Assembly (NCBI RefSeq): GCF_003336755.1
Contig: NZ_QMDI01000005.1
Coordinates: 124,001-188,000 of the forward strand
DNA: 64,000 nt
Direction: 5' to 3'
DNA from: Elioraea thermophila (ex Habib et al. 2022)
GTDB taxonomy: Bacteria; Pseudomonadota; Alphaproteobacteria; Acetobacterales; Acetobacteraceae
Shown piece by piece: positions 26,449 through 54,658 of the stretch. The position numbers were made by a program, and so were the translations under genes. The notes beneath the pieces are model-generated. The model worked only from the letters and a program-made list of their open reading frames with translations. It did no database searches and was not told where the DNA came from. The first letter of the stretch is position 1. Each line of letters begins with the position of its first letter.

Positions 26449-27263
26449 CCCGCCGCCGCCACCGCACCACCCGCAGCCGTGCGCGCGGCCGCGAGCACGG
26501 CCCAGGTGATGGCGCCGAGCAGGAAGGAAAGCGCGGCGGCGACCGCGATGTTCGCCCCCACGGTGAACTCGGCGTAGATCACCATCGGCAGCACGTCGAT
26601 GCGCGTCGCCAGGGTGAAGGCGGTGCCGAACGCACCCATGGCGGTGGCGAAACAGATCGCGCCGGCGGCGAGGAAGGCGCCCTTGAGCCCAGGCAAGATC
26701 ACGTCGCGCACGACGGCCCACGGCGAGGCGCCGAGCGAGCGTGCCGCCTCCTCGAGCGCGGGGTCGAGCTTCTCGGCCGCCGCCATCACGGTCAGCACCG
26801 TGCGCGGGATGGAGAAGTAGAGATAGCCCACGAACAACCCGGCGAGCGAGTAGGCGAAGACGAGACGCTCGCCGGTGAGCGCGAGCGTCACTTCGCCGAT
26901 CACGCCCTGCCGGCCGGCGAGCAGGATCACCATGAAGCCGATGACCACACCGGGGAAGGCGAGCGGCAGGGTGAGGAAGGCGGTGAGCAGCCTCCGGCCG
27001 CGGAACCGGTTCCGCGCCAGGAACACGCCGGCGATGCCGGAGATGACGAGGGTGGCCGCGGTGACCGAGGCCGCGAGCGCCACCGTCTTCCAGAGGCTCG
27101 CGAGGTAGCGGTCGTCGGTGAGGATGATCGCGTAGGTCGCCCAGCCCTCGGGCCCCGTCGCGCCGGTGCGCAGCATCAGCGCGAGGGGCAGGAGGAAGAA
27201 GGCGGCGAGGAAGGCGATCGCCGGGGCGACCAGGAGAGCGAGGGCGAGCCGGTCGCGGCCCAT
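26445..27263 (-). CDS. ABC importer permease 1
   Basis: A 272-residue permease (PotB class) with six predicted helices. The first is ALLVAPAIAFLAAFFLLPLA, and the coupling loop is EEAARSLGASPWAVVRDVIL. It follows the binding-protein gene after a 157-bp gap and overlaps permease 2 by 4 bp. The set resembles iron(III), putrescine/spermidine or aminoethylphosphonate importers; the permease alone does not separate them. Confidence 0.92.
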   Translation of the reverse strand: MGRDRLALALLVAPAIAFLAAFFLLPLALMLRTGATGPEGWATYAIILTDDRYLASLWKTVALAASVTAATLVISGIAGVFLARNRFRGRRLLTAFLTLPLAFPGVVIGFMVILLAGRQGVIGEVTLALTGERLVFAYSLAGLFVGYLYFSIPRTVLTVMAAAEKLDPALEEAARSLGASPWAVVRDVILPGLKGAFLAAGAICFATAMGAFGTAFTLATRIDVLPMVIYAEFTVGANIAVAAALSFLLGAITWAVLAAARTAAGGAVAAAG

Positions 27264-49860: not shown

Positions 49861-51462
49861 TCAAACCGGCAGGGCGGCGGGCCTGCGCCCGCGATACCAC
49901 TGCACCATCAGGAGACGGACGAACACCAGGGCGGAGAACATCGAACAGACGATGCCCACCGAGATGGTGACCGCGAAGCCGCGCACCGGCCCCGAACCGA
50001 AGGCGTAGAGCATCGCCATCGCGAACAGCGTGGTCAGGTTGCTGTCGAGGATGGTTGCGTAGGCGCGTTTGAACCCGGCCTCCATCGCATTGAGCGGCGT
50101 GCGTCCGCGCTTGACCTCCTCGCGGATGCGCTCGTTGATCAGGATGTTCGCATCCACCGCCATGCCGAGCGTGAGCAGGATGCCGGCGATACCCGGAAGA
50201 GTGAGTGTGGCCTCCATCAGCGACAGGGCGGCGAGCAGCAGGATCATGTTGACCACGAGCGCCACCACCGCGAAGGCGCCGAACAGGCCGTAGAACAGCA
50301 GCATCCAGGCGACGACGAGGACGAAACCGATGGCGAGCGCGATCATGCCGGCCCGGATCGCGTCCGCCCCCAGCTCAGGCCCCACCGTGCGTTCCTCCAC
50401 CACCGTAAGCGGGGCCGGCAGCGCGCCGGCGCGCAGCAGGACCGCGAGGTCGTTGGCGGAGGCGGCGGTGAAGTTGCCGCTGATCTGACCCCGCCCGCCG
50501 GTGATCGGTTCGCGGATGACGGGGGCGGTGATCACCTTGTCGTCGAGCACGATGGCGAAGGGGCGCCCGACGTTGTTGCGCGTGACTTCGGCGAAGCGTC
50601 GCGTGCCGATCGAATCGAAGCTGAAATTGACCACCCACTCGCCGGTCTGCGGGTTCTGCCCCGCCCGTGCATCCGTCAGATTGGCGCCATCCACCTCGAC
50701 CCGACGGCGCACGGCGTAGCGTTCGGGCGCACCACCGCGGCCGCGATCGCCCTCGAGGAACATCACCCCCGGCGGTGGCGTGCGCGCGGTGACGTCCGCC
50801 GTCTCGTCCAACAGGTGGAAGGTCATGCGGGCCGTCTTGCCGATCAGCTGCTTGATCCGCTCCGGGTCCTGCACGCCGGGGAGCTGGACGAGAATGCGGT
50901 TCGCACCCTGGCGCGCGATCAGCGGATCGACCACGCCCGTCTCGTCGATGCGGCGGCGAATGATCTCGATCGATTGCTGCACGGCTTGCGTCGCCTTCTC
51001 GCGCAACAACGGTTCGGAGAGGGCGAGGGTGACGAGGCCGTCGGGCGTGGCGGTGACCTCCAGGTCGGGCTGCTGCGCGCCCATCCCGGTGGTGATCGGG
51101 TTGGCGAGCTCGCGCAGGAGCCTGAGCGCCTCCGGCGCGCGGGAGGGGTCGGTGAGACGCAAGGTGACGGCGCGGTCGGCGGCGGCGAGGTTGGTGTAGC
51201 CGATGCCCGCACCGCGCAGCCGTGTGCGCGCCCCGTCCGCGATGTTGTCGAGGCGCTCGCGGATCACCGCAGCCATGTCGACCTCGAGGAGGAGGTAGGA
51301 GCCGCCCTTGAGGTCGAGCCCGAGGTGGATCTGTCGCCAGGGCAGCCACTCCGCGGCGGCCCCGAGCCGCGCCTTGTCCACGAAGGACGGCACGGCGAGC
51401 AGGGCGGCGAGCAGGATGCCGCCGACGATCGAGGCGATCTTCCACGGCGCGAAGTACATCAT
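49861..51462 (-). CDS. secD: Protein translocase subunit SecD
   Basis: A 533-residue partner of SecF. After the first helix comes IHLGLDLKGGSYLLLEVDM, the P1 periplasmic domain with IDETGVVDPLIARQGANRIL, the conserved RAGALPAPLTVVEERTVGPE before helix 2, and the RND-like core GMAVDANILINERIREEVKR with its essential Asp-x-Asn. The length is normal. No yajC gene precedes it here, unlike many genomes; the 160 bp upstream belong to the divergent bciB candidate. Confidence 0.97.
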   Translation of the reverse strand: MMYFAPWKIASIVGGILLAALLAVPSFVDKARLGAAAEWLPWRQIHLGLDLKGGSYLLLEVDMAAVIRERLDNIADGARTRLRGAGIGYTNLAAADRAVTLRLTDPSRAPEALRLLRELANPITTGMGAQQPDLEVTATPDGLVTLALSEPLLREKATQAVQQSIEIIRRRIDETGVVDPLIARQGANRILVQLPGVQDPERIKQLIGKTARMTFHLLDETADVTARTPPPGVMFLEGDRGRGGAPERYAVRRRVEVDGANLTDARAGQNPQTGEWVVNFSFDSIGTRRFAEVTRNNVGRPFAIVLDDKVITAPVIREPITGGRGQISGNFTAASANDLAVLLRAGALPAPLTVVEERTVGPELGADAIRAGMIALAIGFVLVVAWMLLFYGLFGAFAVVALVVNMILLLAALSLMEATLTLPGIAGILLTLGMAVDANILINERIREEVKRGRTPLNAMEAGFKRAYATILDSNLTTLFAMAMLYAFGSGPVRGFAVTISVGIVCSMFSALVFVRLLMVQWYRGRRPAALPV

Positions 51463-51602
51463 GGCGCGAGGCGCACTCCCGGTCGGGGGCCGGGCGAGAG
51501 GGCCCGCCCGGCACGTGCGCGTGGTATGCCCCCGGGGGCGGGGCGAGGCAACGCCGCTCGCCCACGGGTGAAGGGCGCGGCGACGCTGGCCTTGAGCGCG
51601 AG

Positions 51603-51620
51603 TGTCAGGCTAGCCTGACA
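51603..51620. promoter_or_regulatory. Perfect 18-bp palindrome, PpsR/CrtJ-type operator
   Basis: TGTCAGGCTAGCCTGACA reads the same on both strands and fits the PpsR/CrtJ consensus TGT-N12-ACA with the preferred flanking CA/TG (TGTCA-N8-TGACA). It ends 2 bp before the ATG of the BciB-type gene and lies in the divergent gap with secD. PpsR/CrtJ represses photosynthesis genes under oxygen. Match to the motif is seen; binding is inferred. Confidence 0.75.
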
Positions 51621-51622
51621 GA

Positions 51623-52864
51623 ATGGACAGCCGCCCGCCGCGCGAGGGGCCCTGGGGCCCGGGGGTCGAAACCATACCCCTGCGCGCCGCCCCGTATCGC
51701 GACCTCTGCACCGACTGCGGGGTGTCGCGGCTTGCCGACGCCAAGGCCTGCGGGACCGCCTGCCAGTTCATCCGTCCCGACTATGCGGGGCTCGAGGCGG
51801 CAGTGCATGGCCGAGCGCGCGATCCGGCACGGGCGGATGAAGACCATTTCGGCGTCTTCCTTCGCCTCGTGCGGGCCCGCCTGCGCGCGCCCCGCCCGGG
51901 CGCGCAGTGGACGGGCATCGCGACCCGGCTGGCCGAACGCCTGCTCGAGACGGGGATGGTCGAGGCGGTGCTCACCGTCGCCCCCGACCCGGATGACCGC
52001 TGGCGCCCCGTGCCGGTGCTGGTGACGCGGGCCGAGGGCATGGCCGCCTGCCGCGGCATGCGCATGGGCTATGCGCCGCTCCTTGCCCTGCTCGAACCCG
52101 CTCTCGCGCGCGGCCATCGCCGCCTCGCCGTCATCGGCATTCCCTGCCAGGTCTACGCCCTGCGCGCGCTGGAACGGCGCCTCGGGCTCGAGCGTCTCTA
52201 TGTCATCGGCACGCCCTGTTCGGACAATACGACGACGGAGAACTTCCACCGCTTCCTCGCCAACCTCGACGAGGACCCTTGTTCCATCACATACCTCGAG
52301 TTCCGCGCCGACATGCTGGTCGAGCTCCGTTACGCGGATGGGCGGGTGCGCACGATCCCGTTCCTGATGCTGCCGATCGCCGACCTGCCGGCCGATTTCT
52401 TCCCCCTCACCTGCCGCACCTGTGTCGATTACGTGAATGCGCTCGCCGATCTCGTCGTCGGCTACATGGGGGGAGAGGGGCGGCAGTGGCTGATCATGCG
52501 CAACGCACGCGGCGAGGCGTTGCTCGACTTGCTCGGCGACGAGGTGGAGCTCGGCGCCCCGACCGATCGCGGCAGGCGCGACGGCCCGGTGAAGGCGTTT
52601 CTCGAGAACACGCGCCGTGCGGCGGGGGGGCTTCCGTTGCGGCGGATGCCGAAGTGGCTCAGGCCCATCGTCGGCCGGATCATGCCCCTTGTGGCGCCGA
52701 AGGGGCTCGAGTTCGCGCGTGCGCGGGTGGAGATGAAGGCGATCGAGACGGCGCTCCTCGTGCCGCGCGCGCGGCCCAGGCGCGTGCGGCACATGGTGCC
52801 GCCGCATGTGTGGCGGCTGGTGGCGCGATACGGGATTCAACCGCCGGATCGGCCTTCGGGCTGA
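51623..52864 (+). CDS. bciB: FrhB-family 3,8-divinyl chlorophyllide 8-vinyl reductase (BciB type)
   Basis: A 413-residue iron-sulfur flavoprotein of the coenzyme F420 hydrogenase beta-subunit (FrhB) family. N-terminal cysteines C29, C32, C43 and C47 (LCTDCGVSRLADAKACGTAC) probably hold a [4Fe-4S] cluster. The core has LAVIGIPCQVYALRALERRL, YVIGTPCSDNTTTENFHRFL and PLTCRTCVDYVNALADLVVG, which match my recollection of BciB-type 8-vinyl reductases acting in bacteriochlorophyll synthesis. The perfect PpsR-type operator just upstream supports this over other FrhB proteins such as F420-dependent dehydrogenases. No other bch gene is in the window. The gene has no ribosome site beyond the operator, so it may be leaderless. 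Confidence 0.75.
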   Translation: MDSRPPREGPWGPGVETIPLRAAPYRDLCTDCGVSRLADAKACGTACQFIRPDYAGLEAAVHGRARDPARADEDHFGVFLRLVRARLRAPRPGAQWTGIATRLAERLLETGMVEAVLTVAPDPDDRWRPVPVLVTRAEGMAACRGMRMGYAPLLALLEPALARGHRRLAVIGIPCQVYALRALERRLGLERLYVIGTPCSDNTTTENFHRFLANLDEDPCSITYLEFRADMLVELRYADGRVRTIPFLMLPIADLPADFFPLTCRTCVDYVNALADLVVGYMGGEGRQWLIMRNARGEALLDLLGDEVELGAPTDRGRRDGPVKAFLENTRRAAGGLPLRRMPKWLRPIVGRIMPLVAPKGLEFARARVEMKAIETALLVPRARPRRVRHMVPPHVWRLVARYGIQPPDRPSG

Positions 52865-52873
52865 GGGAGGCCG

Positions 52874-54658
52874 TCAGCGGCGGGCTTCCAGTGACCTGAT
52901 CGCCGCCTCGATGCGGGCGCGCGCGACGGCGCCGATGTGATCGGCCACGCCGTTGGAGAGGAGCCAGCCGCCGATCGGCAGCCGACCCAGCCCCAGACGA
53001 TGCAAGACGCGGCGAAGACGCGGCGTTAGGTCACCGCCGAGCACACTCAGGTGCCGCAAGTCACGGGCGTCTCGCGGATCGTCGAATGGCCAGGGCGGCT
53101 GTTGGACGTGCCCAAGATGGTGCTGGACGATGGGAATGATCTGGACCCCCTGAACACCTTTGTAGTCTTCGATCTTTCGAGGAGGAAAATAATCGCGAAC
53201 GAGGGGGTGGTTCACGGGCATGGTGAAGTGCCGGCGCAGCCATCCCCGCATGTTCCAGCGCCCAAGCAGAAAGTCGTGCAGGCGAAGCGCGGGGTGAAGA
53301 AAGCCGAGGAAGGCTTCGAGCCCAGAGCCGCAGAGCGCGTCCTCGCCCCAGTACTCGTGGTCTTGCCTCGCCGAGCTCTCGCGTTTTGGGAGAAAGAGAT
53401 GACGGCTCGCGACGTCGTCCCGCGACGCCAGGAGGAGTTCCGAGGCGGAGTAGCGCCCGTGCGCCACCAGGGCGCCGATCAACCGCCCCCCAACCGAGAT
53501 GACGTCCCCGGGCGGTGTCCAGGCCGGGGCAGCGGCACCGGCGGCGAGCGGGCTGATGATCACGATCGCCGCCTGGGCCTTGCTTTCGTCGCGCTCCAGC
53601 ACCCCGCCCAACCCCGCCATGCGGTCGTGCACGAGCCGAAACGGACTGTTGTTCAAGGCACCGCCGTCGACGGCGACATACGTGTAGTCCTGGTCGAGTC
53701 GTTCGTCCGCGGGCCAATCCGGCTCGAGTAGGGCAGGCTCGAACACGCGCGCGCCGGCGGCACCATCCGCCGTTCTGGCCGATGGAACCATGACGGCGCG
53801 CCAATGGTAGTGCGCGTAGGGGCGGCTCAAGGTCACCGCCGGAAACACCACCGGAAACGCGCCGGAGGCGCGCGCATGGCGGGCGAGCGTGGTCCACCAC
53901 CCGTTCGACGCGTAGGGCAGCCTCGCATCGATGAAAAACTCATCGGAGCGGGGACGATCACTGTCCTTACGCTCCTTACGCTGATCCTTGGGTGGATCCT
54001 TGCTACCCAACACGAAGGTGACGTGATCGGCGTGCGAGACGAAGCGTGTACTCCGCGGGTTGTTGTTGGCATCCGGCCGCAACGACAGTCGGTAGGGAAC
54101 GCCGCGCAGGTTCGTTAGCGTCATCAGCACGCGAAACGGGTCGCGGATCCAGGGCCGCTCGACCTCCCCTGCGCCGTGCCAACGGAGCAAGGCGGCCATC
54201 GCGTTCTCGATCGCTTTCGCGGCCAGAATGCTCTCGACTGAGCGGCGGCTGTCGGCAAGGTCATCGCGGACCAGCATGTCACGCGCATCGAGCGCGTTGA
54301 CCCAGAGATCGAAGAACGGATTGCCGGGCGTCGCGCCGTAGGGAAACTTCCGGCGTGCGGCGCGCATCATCAGCGCGGCGCACACCGCGCCGCCCGAGGC
54401 CCCGCCGGCGATCTCGATGACGACGCGATGTCGGGGCACCGCCTCGCCGGCGTCCTTCGCGGCCTGCCAAGCGTCCAGCACCTCGAACAGCGCATCGAGC
54501 GCTCCGGCCGTCCAGGCGCCAGCGGAGACGGTGCCGTCCAGCACCAGACCGAGCCGAAAGAGATCCGGTTCAGGTCGTTCGACGAGCGGCCTGCGGAGTT
54601 CGTCTAGAATGTCCCGCCGGTCCGCTTCTGAAAGCCGACGCTCCGCCGATCCGACCAT
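52874..54658 (-). CDS. Patatin-like phospholipase
   Basis: A 594-residue protein with a patatin fold in the N-terminal part. The nucleophile elbow GGASGG (G-x-S-x-G) is at about residue 92, and the catalytic Asp lies in VAVDGGALNNSPF (DGG). The oxyanion loop, normally DGGGxRG, reads LDGTVSAGAWTAGALDAL. The 594-residue size exceeds a bare patatin domain, and the remainder (about 380-594) has no recognised fold. It would hydrolyse phospholipid or acyl esters. It shares a 9-bp convergent gap with the BciB candidate. Confidence 0.78.
   Translation of the reverse strand: MVGSAERRLSEADRRDILDELRRPLVERPEPDLFRLGLVLDGTVSAGAWTAGALDALFEVLDAWQAAKDAGEAVPRHRVVIEIAGGASGGAVCAALMMRAARRKFPYGATPGNPFFDLWVNALDARDMLVRDDLADSRRSVESILAAKAIENAMAALLRWHGAGEVERPWIRDPFRVLMTLTNLRGVPYRLSLRPDANNNPRSTRFVSHADHVTFVLGSKDPPKDQRKERKDSDRPRSDEFFIDARLPYASNGWWTTLARHARASGAFPVVFPAVTLSRPYAHYHWRAVMVPSARTADGAAGARVFEPALLEPDWPADERLDQDYTYVAVDGGALNNSPFRLVHDRMAGLGGVLERDESKAQAAIVIISPLAAGAAAPAWTPPGDVISVGGRLIGALVAHGRYSASELLLASRDDVASRHLFLPKRESSARQDHEYWGEDALCGSGLEAFLGFLHPALRLHDFLLGRWNMRGWLRRHFTMPVNHPLVRDYFPPRKIEDYKGVQGVQIIPIVQHHLGHVQQPPWPFDDPRDARDLRHLSVLGGDLTPRLRRVLHRLGLGRLPIGGWLLSNGVADHIGAVARARIEAAIRSLEARR

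What the first reader, a model, noticed from the sequence alone, without database searches (positions are those of the whole stretch)
51603..51620. Perfect PpsR/CrtJ-type operator at the start of a BciB-like gene
The 18-bp palindrome matches TGT-N12-ACA with the favoured CA/TG flanks and lies 2 bp from the ATG of an FrhB-family gene resembling divinyl chlorophyllide 8-vinyl reductase. No other bch/crt gene is in the window, so a dispersed photosynthesis gene may be under PpsR control outside a photosynthesis gene cluster. Operator and start are so close that transcription may be leaderless or the site may act as a roadblock.
Basis: partly seen in the sequence, partly recalled or inferred. Interest (0 to 1): 0.75.

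Follow-up and report, generated by a model that had tools for sequence, protein, structure and literature searches.

The report
PpsR operator inside leaderless bciB promoter
A stray bacteriochlorophyll gene, far from the main photosynthesis genes, carries its own on/off switch site for the light- and oxygen-linked repressor PpsR, placed exactly on the promoter so that repressor and RNA polymerase would compete; a modest, well-supported addition to a known regulatory system.

Summary
The palindrome TGTCAGGCTAGCCTGACA at 51603-51620 is real and ends 2 bp before the ATG (51623) of a 413-aa BciB-type 8-vinyl reductase gene. The genome has a phototroph's gene set: ppsR, a neighbouring B12-binding aerR-like gene, bch, crt, reaction-centre and antenna genes. 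TGT-N12-ACA alone is noise (163 sites; reversed-pattern control 153), but the strict form TGTMA-N8-TKACA occurs only five times in 3.03 Mb (control 0). The other four lie at bchF, crtD/crtE and, in tandem, the puc-type antenna genes. With a matrix built from published R. sphaeroides PpsR sites, this site scores 20.7 bits, within the range of those sites. Site and 2-bp gap are kept in the only other genus member found with bciB.

Comparison adds a mechanism: a TAGCCT -10 hexamer lies inside the palindrome, 6 nt before ATG. TAGSCT 6-8 nt before ATG recurs in the closest bciB loci (9 of 101; about 0.2 expected), and the same genome's bchC promoter holds a PpsR-like site with its -10 in identical register. 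Most likely PpsR represses a leaderless bciB promoter by covering its -10. New member of a known kind; no binding or transcription data.

The parts
51603..51620 (.). PpsR/CrtJ-type operator TGTCAGGCTAGCCTGACA (perfect palindrome, TGTCA-N8-TGACA)
   Evidence: 20.7 bits with a matrix from R. sphaeroides ChIP-seq sites, next best in the window 12.8; conserved in G004 with one changed spacer base
51611..51616 (+). probable -10 hexamer TAGCCT, inside the palindrome, 6 nt before ATG
   Evidence: TAGSCT 6-8 nt before ATG in 9 of 101 distinct bciB loci, about 0.2 expected; alignment of the closest loci; same register as TAGACT in the own bchC lower PpsR-like site
51587..51592 (+). weak candidate -35 TGGCCT, 18-bp spacer to the -10
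   Evidence: CGCTGGCC is kept in G004 where neighbouring bases differ; TGGACG lies at the same 18-bp spacing in L012, L036, L122 and L123; inference
51611..51613 (+). in-frame stop TAG upstream of the gene; with no GTG/TTG before the CTDCG motif it makes ATG 51623 the only standard start
   Evidence: sequence
51623..52864 (+). bciB-type 8-vinyl reductase gene (413 aa, FrhB_FdhB_N/C); the A of ATG is also the predicted transcription start
   Evidence: 8 cysteines (29, 32, 43, 47, 175, 199, 264, 267) in all of 100 homologues
49861..51462 (-). secD, divergent neighbour; 140 bp between its start and the operator
   Evidence: Pfam SecD domains
52874..54658 (-). patatin-like phospholipase, convergent neighbour, ordinary
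   Evidence: PF01734

Best explanation
The palindrome is a PpsR/CrtJ operator built into the -10 region of a leaderless promoter for a dispersed bciB gene. When PpsR binds (expected under oxidising and/or bright-light conditions, modulated by the AerR-like protein encoded beside ppsR), it covers the TAGCCT -10 hexamer and the start point, so RNA polymerase cannot form an open complex and the 8-vinyl reductase is not made. When PpsR repression is lifted, transcription starts at or within 1-2 nt of the A of ATG 51623 and BciB is made together with the bch, crt and puc genes that carry the same operator. Shown here: the site, its regulon-like distribution, its conservation in G004, the phototrophic gene set, the BciB assignment and the conserved -10/ATG spacing. 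Inferred: PpsR binding, direction of control, the transcription start, and the enzyme's activity.
For: ppsR is present full length with its HTH_8 domain, beside a B12-binding aerR-like gene. The strict motif gives 5 sites in the genome, control 0; the others lie at bchF, at crtD/crtE and, in tandem, upstream of the LH antenna genes and pucC-like gene. The score of 20.7 bits is within the 13-28 of the published R. sphaeroides sites; own bchC, crtD, bchF and puc sites score 21-25 at best (matrix from PMC4344238 Table 2). G004, the only other genus member found with bciB, has TGTCAGGCTAGGCTGACA at the same 2-bp distance although the DNA just upstream has diverged. BciB co-occurs with the reaction centre (24 of 52 against 1 of 98, p about 2e-12) and was found in no genome with BciA. 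TAGSCT lies 6-8 nt before ATG in 9 of 101 loci against 0.2 expected. The own bchC lower site CGTCAAGT-TAGACT-GACA has the same register as TGTCAGGC-TAGCCT-GACA. Precedents: the R. capsulatus bchC lower palindrome spans -21 to -4 over the -10 (PMC5362033); D. shibae bchF motif 1 overlaps the -10 and start (PMC10890935). PpsR-like sites of at least 14 bits recur upstream of bciB in several other lineages (8 of 105 loci including a duplicate, about 1.2 expected).
Against: No binding, expression or start-site data. In the own genome the bchC, crtD and puc sites are tandem, 7-8 bp apart, and PpsR is known to bind such pairs cooperatively; here there is one site and no partner nearby. Strong PpsR sites without regulation are known (RSP_2095 and RSP_3000 in R. 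sphaeroides, PMC4344238). The R. sphaeroides ChIP list holds no 8-vinyl reductase gene of the BciA or BciB type. The -35 is weak. Most bciB loci of other genera lack such a site.
Confidence: 0.8

Rival explanations
1. PpsR binds the site, but acts as a roadblock or in some other way on a transcript that starts further upstream, rather than by covering the -10.
For: The site is next to the start codon; a 140-bp gap to secD leaves room for an upstream promoter. CrtJ can also act as an activator (abstract of PMC9144470).
Against: No Shine-Dalgarno-like sequence is seen before the ATG, an in-frame stop lies inside the palindrome, and TAGSCT sits 6-8 nt before ATG in the closest loci; the -10 register equals that of the own bchC promoter.
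Confidence: 0.1
2. The palindrome is the operator of another regulator and only resembles a PpsR site.
For: Perfect inverted repeats are used by many repressor families; the GC-rich core GGCTAGCC differs from the mostly AT-richer cores of the other own sites; it is solitary.
Against: All five strict matches in the genome lie at photosynthesis genes; the matrix score is in the range of published sites; the two genes flanking bciB are secD and a patatin-like gene, not a regulator.
Confidence: 0.06
3. Chance palindrome with no function.
For: About 1.8 perfect 18-bp palindromes are expected per 64 kb of such DNA, and 0.94 strict motifs per genome by base composition.
Against: It would have to fall by chance 2 bp before a bacteriochlorophyll gene, in the register of a -10, and be kept in G004 where flanking DNA has changed.
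Confidence: 0.03
4. The gene is an FrhB-family enzyme that does something other than 8-vinyl reduction (for example the plant HCAR reaction, or an unrelated redox role).
For: The best solved relative is HCAR, and no curated equivalog model for BciB matched.
Against: Near-restriction to genomes with reaction centres and no overlap with BciA; HCAR acts in the plant chlorophyll b-to-a conversion and is proposed to derive from BciB (PMC4214422). Even an HCAR-like activity would leave the operator finding standing.
Confidence: 0.07

Closest known systems
R. capsulatus bchC promoter with two CrtJ palindromes (PMC5362033)
   Same: Palindrome TGT-N12-ACA over the -10; the lower site spans -21 to -4, here -20 to -3 if the A of ATG is +1.
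   Different: bchC has a second site over the -35; here the site is single. bchC is a photosynthesis-cluster gene; in the own genome bchC has a leader with a Shine-Dalgarno-like GGGAGG, whereas bciB would be leaderless.
Dinoroseobacter shibae bchF promoter with PpsR motifs 1 and 2 (PMC10890935)
   Same: Motif 1 overlaps the -10 and start point; repression by blocking RNA polymerase is the model there too.
   Different: Several sites; the nearest is about 28-30 bp from the translation start.
R. sphaeroides PpsR regulon by ChIP-seq (PMC4344238)
   Same: Same operator consensus; targets bch, crt and puc.
   Different: No BciA/BciB-type 8-vinyl reductase gene is in that list; this site would add that step to the regulon.
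BciB-type 8-vinyl reductases (Synechocystis slr1923, Chloroherpeton Ctha_1208; PMC4214422) and plant HCAR (PDB 5dqr)
   Same: FrhB N and C domains; related to HCAR along nearly its whole length.
   Different: Proteobacterial member; activity untested here.

Membership tests
PpsR/CrtJ operator | TGT-N12-ACA, preferably TGTCA-N8-TGACA | tested here: met
   20.7 bits
PpsR/CrtJ operator | cognate PpsR encoded in the genome | tested here: met
   TIGR02040 493 bits, cut-off 275
PpsR/CrtJ operator | same motif at known PpsR targets of that genome | tested here: met
   bchF, bchC, crtD/crtE, puc-type antenna genes
PpsR/CrtJ operator | position over promoter elements | tested here: met
   covers a predicted -10; comparative evidence only
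PpsR/CrtJ operator | tandem pair for cooperative binding (usual, not obligatory) | tested here: not met
   no second site of 6 bits or more between 51201 and 52200
PpsR/CrtJ operator | binding by PpsR and regulation by ppsR | not testable with these tools
   needs gel shift, ChIP, a mutant
BciB 8-vinyl reductase | FrhB_FdhB N and C domains | tested here: met
   PF04422, PF04432
BciB 8-vinyl reductase | closer to BciB/HCAR than to F420-linked FrhB | tested here: met
   238 bits to HCAR, 60 bits to the next; F420 models far under their cut-offs
BciB 8-vinyl reductase | conserved cysteines for Fe-S clusters | tested here: met
   eight cysteines in all of 100 homologues; not compared ligand by ligand with a structure
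BciB 8-vinyl reductase | occurs in (B)Chl-making organisms, in place of BciA | tested here: met
   24 of 25 BciB genomes have PF00124; none has BciA
BciB 8-vinyl reductase | reduces the C8-vinyl group | not testable with these tools
   needs a mutant with pigment analysis
Leaderless transcript | 5' end at the start codon | tested here: inconclusive
   indirect: -10 6 nt before ATG, conserved spacing; no start-site data

The most novel reading that the evidence does not exclude
In one lineage of phototrophic Acetobacteraceae (Rubritepida-like genomes and the window's genus), a leaderless bciB promoter has been placed under PpsR more than once or at shifting positions: a degenerate site TGTC-N10-GACG over the -35 in L012, L036, L122 and L123, and a perfect single site over the -10 in G000 and G004. 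This would make bciB a case of operator turnover inside a fixed core promoter, with one solitary palindrome sufficient for control of a leaderless gene.
Probability: 0.35. Interest if true: 0.5.

Novelty: new member of a known kind. Interest (0 to 1): 0.4.

Why it matters
The R. sphaeroides PpsR regulon mapped by ChIP-seq has no BciA/BciB-type 8-vinyl reductase gene in it. Here a dispersed copy of that step is tied to the regulator by an operator merged with a core promoter, which shows how a gene outside the cluster can be brought under photosynthesis control. It also gives a small, clean test promoter (single site, leaderless start) for the question whether PpsR needs paired sites.

Tried and rejected
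TGT-N12-ACA as a genome-wide signal: rejected, no clear excess over the reversed pattern. Palindrome perfection as evidence: rejected, 1.8 expected per 64 kb. A second, tandem site: not found. Conservation of the site in all bciB loci: not found; most of 80 loci lack TGT-N12-ACA upstream. bciB inside photosynthesis clusters elsewhere: only 7 of 80 loci have a related cluster gene within the fetched flanks. TTGAGC at 51592 as -35: rejected, not kept in G004 and 13 bp from the -10. Structure prediction was not run, since the sequence match to HCAR sufficed. The careful tree did not finish; the quick tree was used.

Full report
What is there. TGTCAGGCTAGCCTGACA lies at 51603-51620, followed by GA and the ATG at 51623 of a 413-aa reading frame. 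An in-frame TAG (51611-51613) sits inside the palindrome and no GTG or TTG precedes the CTDCG motif, so ATG 51623 is the only standard start. Upstream, 140 bp away, is divergent secD; downstream a convergent patatin-like gene.

Chance. Neither palindromicity nor TGT-N12-ACA is significant alone. The strict form TGTMA-N8-TKACA is: five in the 3.03-Mb genome, none for the reversed pattern, 0.94 expected by composition. Their places are C2:788690 (bchF, with the aerR-like gene and ppsR alongside), C2:877289 (crtD; divergent polyprenyl synthase, crtE-like), C6:225647 and 225672 (tandem, upstream of two LHC antenna genes and a pucC-like gene), and this site. The pucC-like label rests on position and sequence look alone; no NCBIfam model matched. 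A matrix from 15 of the PpsR ChIP-seq sites of R. sphaeroides (PMC4344238) gives 20.7 bits here, the next best in the window 12.8, and 17-25 bits at bchF, bchC, crtD and puc of the same genome.

The host. G000 has ppsR (493 bits, full length, HTH_8), a B12-binding neighbour (aerR-like), bchP, bchF, bchB, bchH, bchL and acsF, and two reaction-centre genes at C2:867-869 kb. Photosynthesis genes are thus in at least two blocks on C2, antenna genes on C6, and bciB on C5. The nearest named bciB loci are Rubritepida and Roseomonas-type Acetobacteraceae; a genus name is not established.

The protein. FrhB N and C domains; by far the best solved relative is plant HCAR, itself proposed to descend from BciB. 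Eight cysteines are invariant in 100 homologues. In 150 genomes of the family, BciB is in 25; 24 of those are among the 52 with a reaction centre over cut-off, the exception being an 80%-complete assembly (p about 2e-12). BciA was found in 7 genomes (an eighth match is only 31% identical) and never with BciB; among reaction-centre genomes the lack of overlap has p about 0.02. Within the genus, BciB is only in G000 and G004; the two complete relatives G002 and G006 have neither BciB nor a BciA match, and in G001 and G002 another gene stands where bciB stands here.

Conservation of the operator. In G004 the gene (89% identical over the part on the contig) is preceded by TGTCAGGCTAGGCTGACA with the same 2-bp gap, although adjacent upstream DNA has changed. 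Outside the genus, sites of at least 14 bits are over-represented upstream of bciB: 8 of 105 loci in all, G004 counted twice, about 1.2 expected. So bciB is a sporadic but recurrent candidate PpsR target.

Promoter. TAGSCT stands 6-8 nt before an ATG in 9 of 101 distinct bciB loci, where about 0.2 were expected. They include G000, G004 and the four loci that form a 99%-supported clade with the window protein (L012, L036, L122, L123). In those four, TGGACG lies 18 bp upstream of the -10, inside an 18-mer TGTC-N10-GACG; TGT-N12-ACG is a reported PpsR site form in Rubrivivax pucB (PMC4452267). In G000 and G004 that -35 element is absent and the palindrome lies on the -10 instead. The own bchC promoter reads CGTCAAGT-TAGACT-GACA, the same register as TGTCAGGC-TAGCCT-GACA here. 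With the A of ATG as +1 the operator spans -20 to -3; the lower CrtJ palindrome of R. capsulatus bchC spans -21 to -4 (PMC5362033). Leaderless mRNAs make up 7% of mapped mRNAs in the alphaproteobacterium Methylorubrum (PMC9320726), so a leaderless start is not exceptional.

Mechanism. PpsR bound at 51603-51620 would cover the -10 and start point and block RNA polymerase; release would give a leaderless bciB mRNA in step with the other photosynthesis genes. Shown: sequence, distribution, conservation, gene set. Inferred: binding, sign of regulation, start point, enzyme activity. The main oddity is that the site is single, while bchC, crtD and puc of this genome have pairs 7-8 bp apart (the second crtD site is weak, 11.7 bits). 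A cautionary precedent is that two strong PpsR-bound sites in R. sphaeroides showed no effect on expression.

Verdict. Observation confirmed; interpretation supported in the main. A new target for a known regulator with a tidy promoter architecture; not a new kind of system.

Noticed in passing
L042:7237-8508 and L079:7194-8312: A ppsR-like gene (40% identical to the own PpsR) lies directly downstream of bciB, on the opposite strand; L079 also has a strong PpsR-like site (25.5 bits) before bciB.
   Followed up: partly
G002 and G006 (same genus, 100% complete): ppsR is present in both, and reaction-centre genes were found in G006 (G002 not checked), yet neither has BciB nor a BciA match; 8-vinyl reduction may rest on the BchXYZ (COR) enzyme.
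   Followed up: partly
G066:C64:86573-87772 (L123): The bciB frame of this genome holds one TAG by the search; a broken end, an assembly error or a match running past the stop.
   Followed up: no
G004:C240:687-704, G006:C133:2499-2516, G006:C320:4550-4567: Further strict PpsR motifs in relatives whose target genes were not identified.
   Followed up: no
window 26999-27016: The only other perfect 18-bp palindrome of the window, CGCGGAACCGGTTCCGCG.
   Followed up: no
G000:C2:788494-788535: A PpsR-like site whose right arm forms TTGACA, 18 bp before TAGCCT, reading towards bchF: supports TAGCCT as a -10 in this genome.
   Followed up: partly
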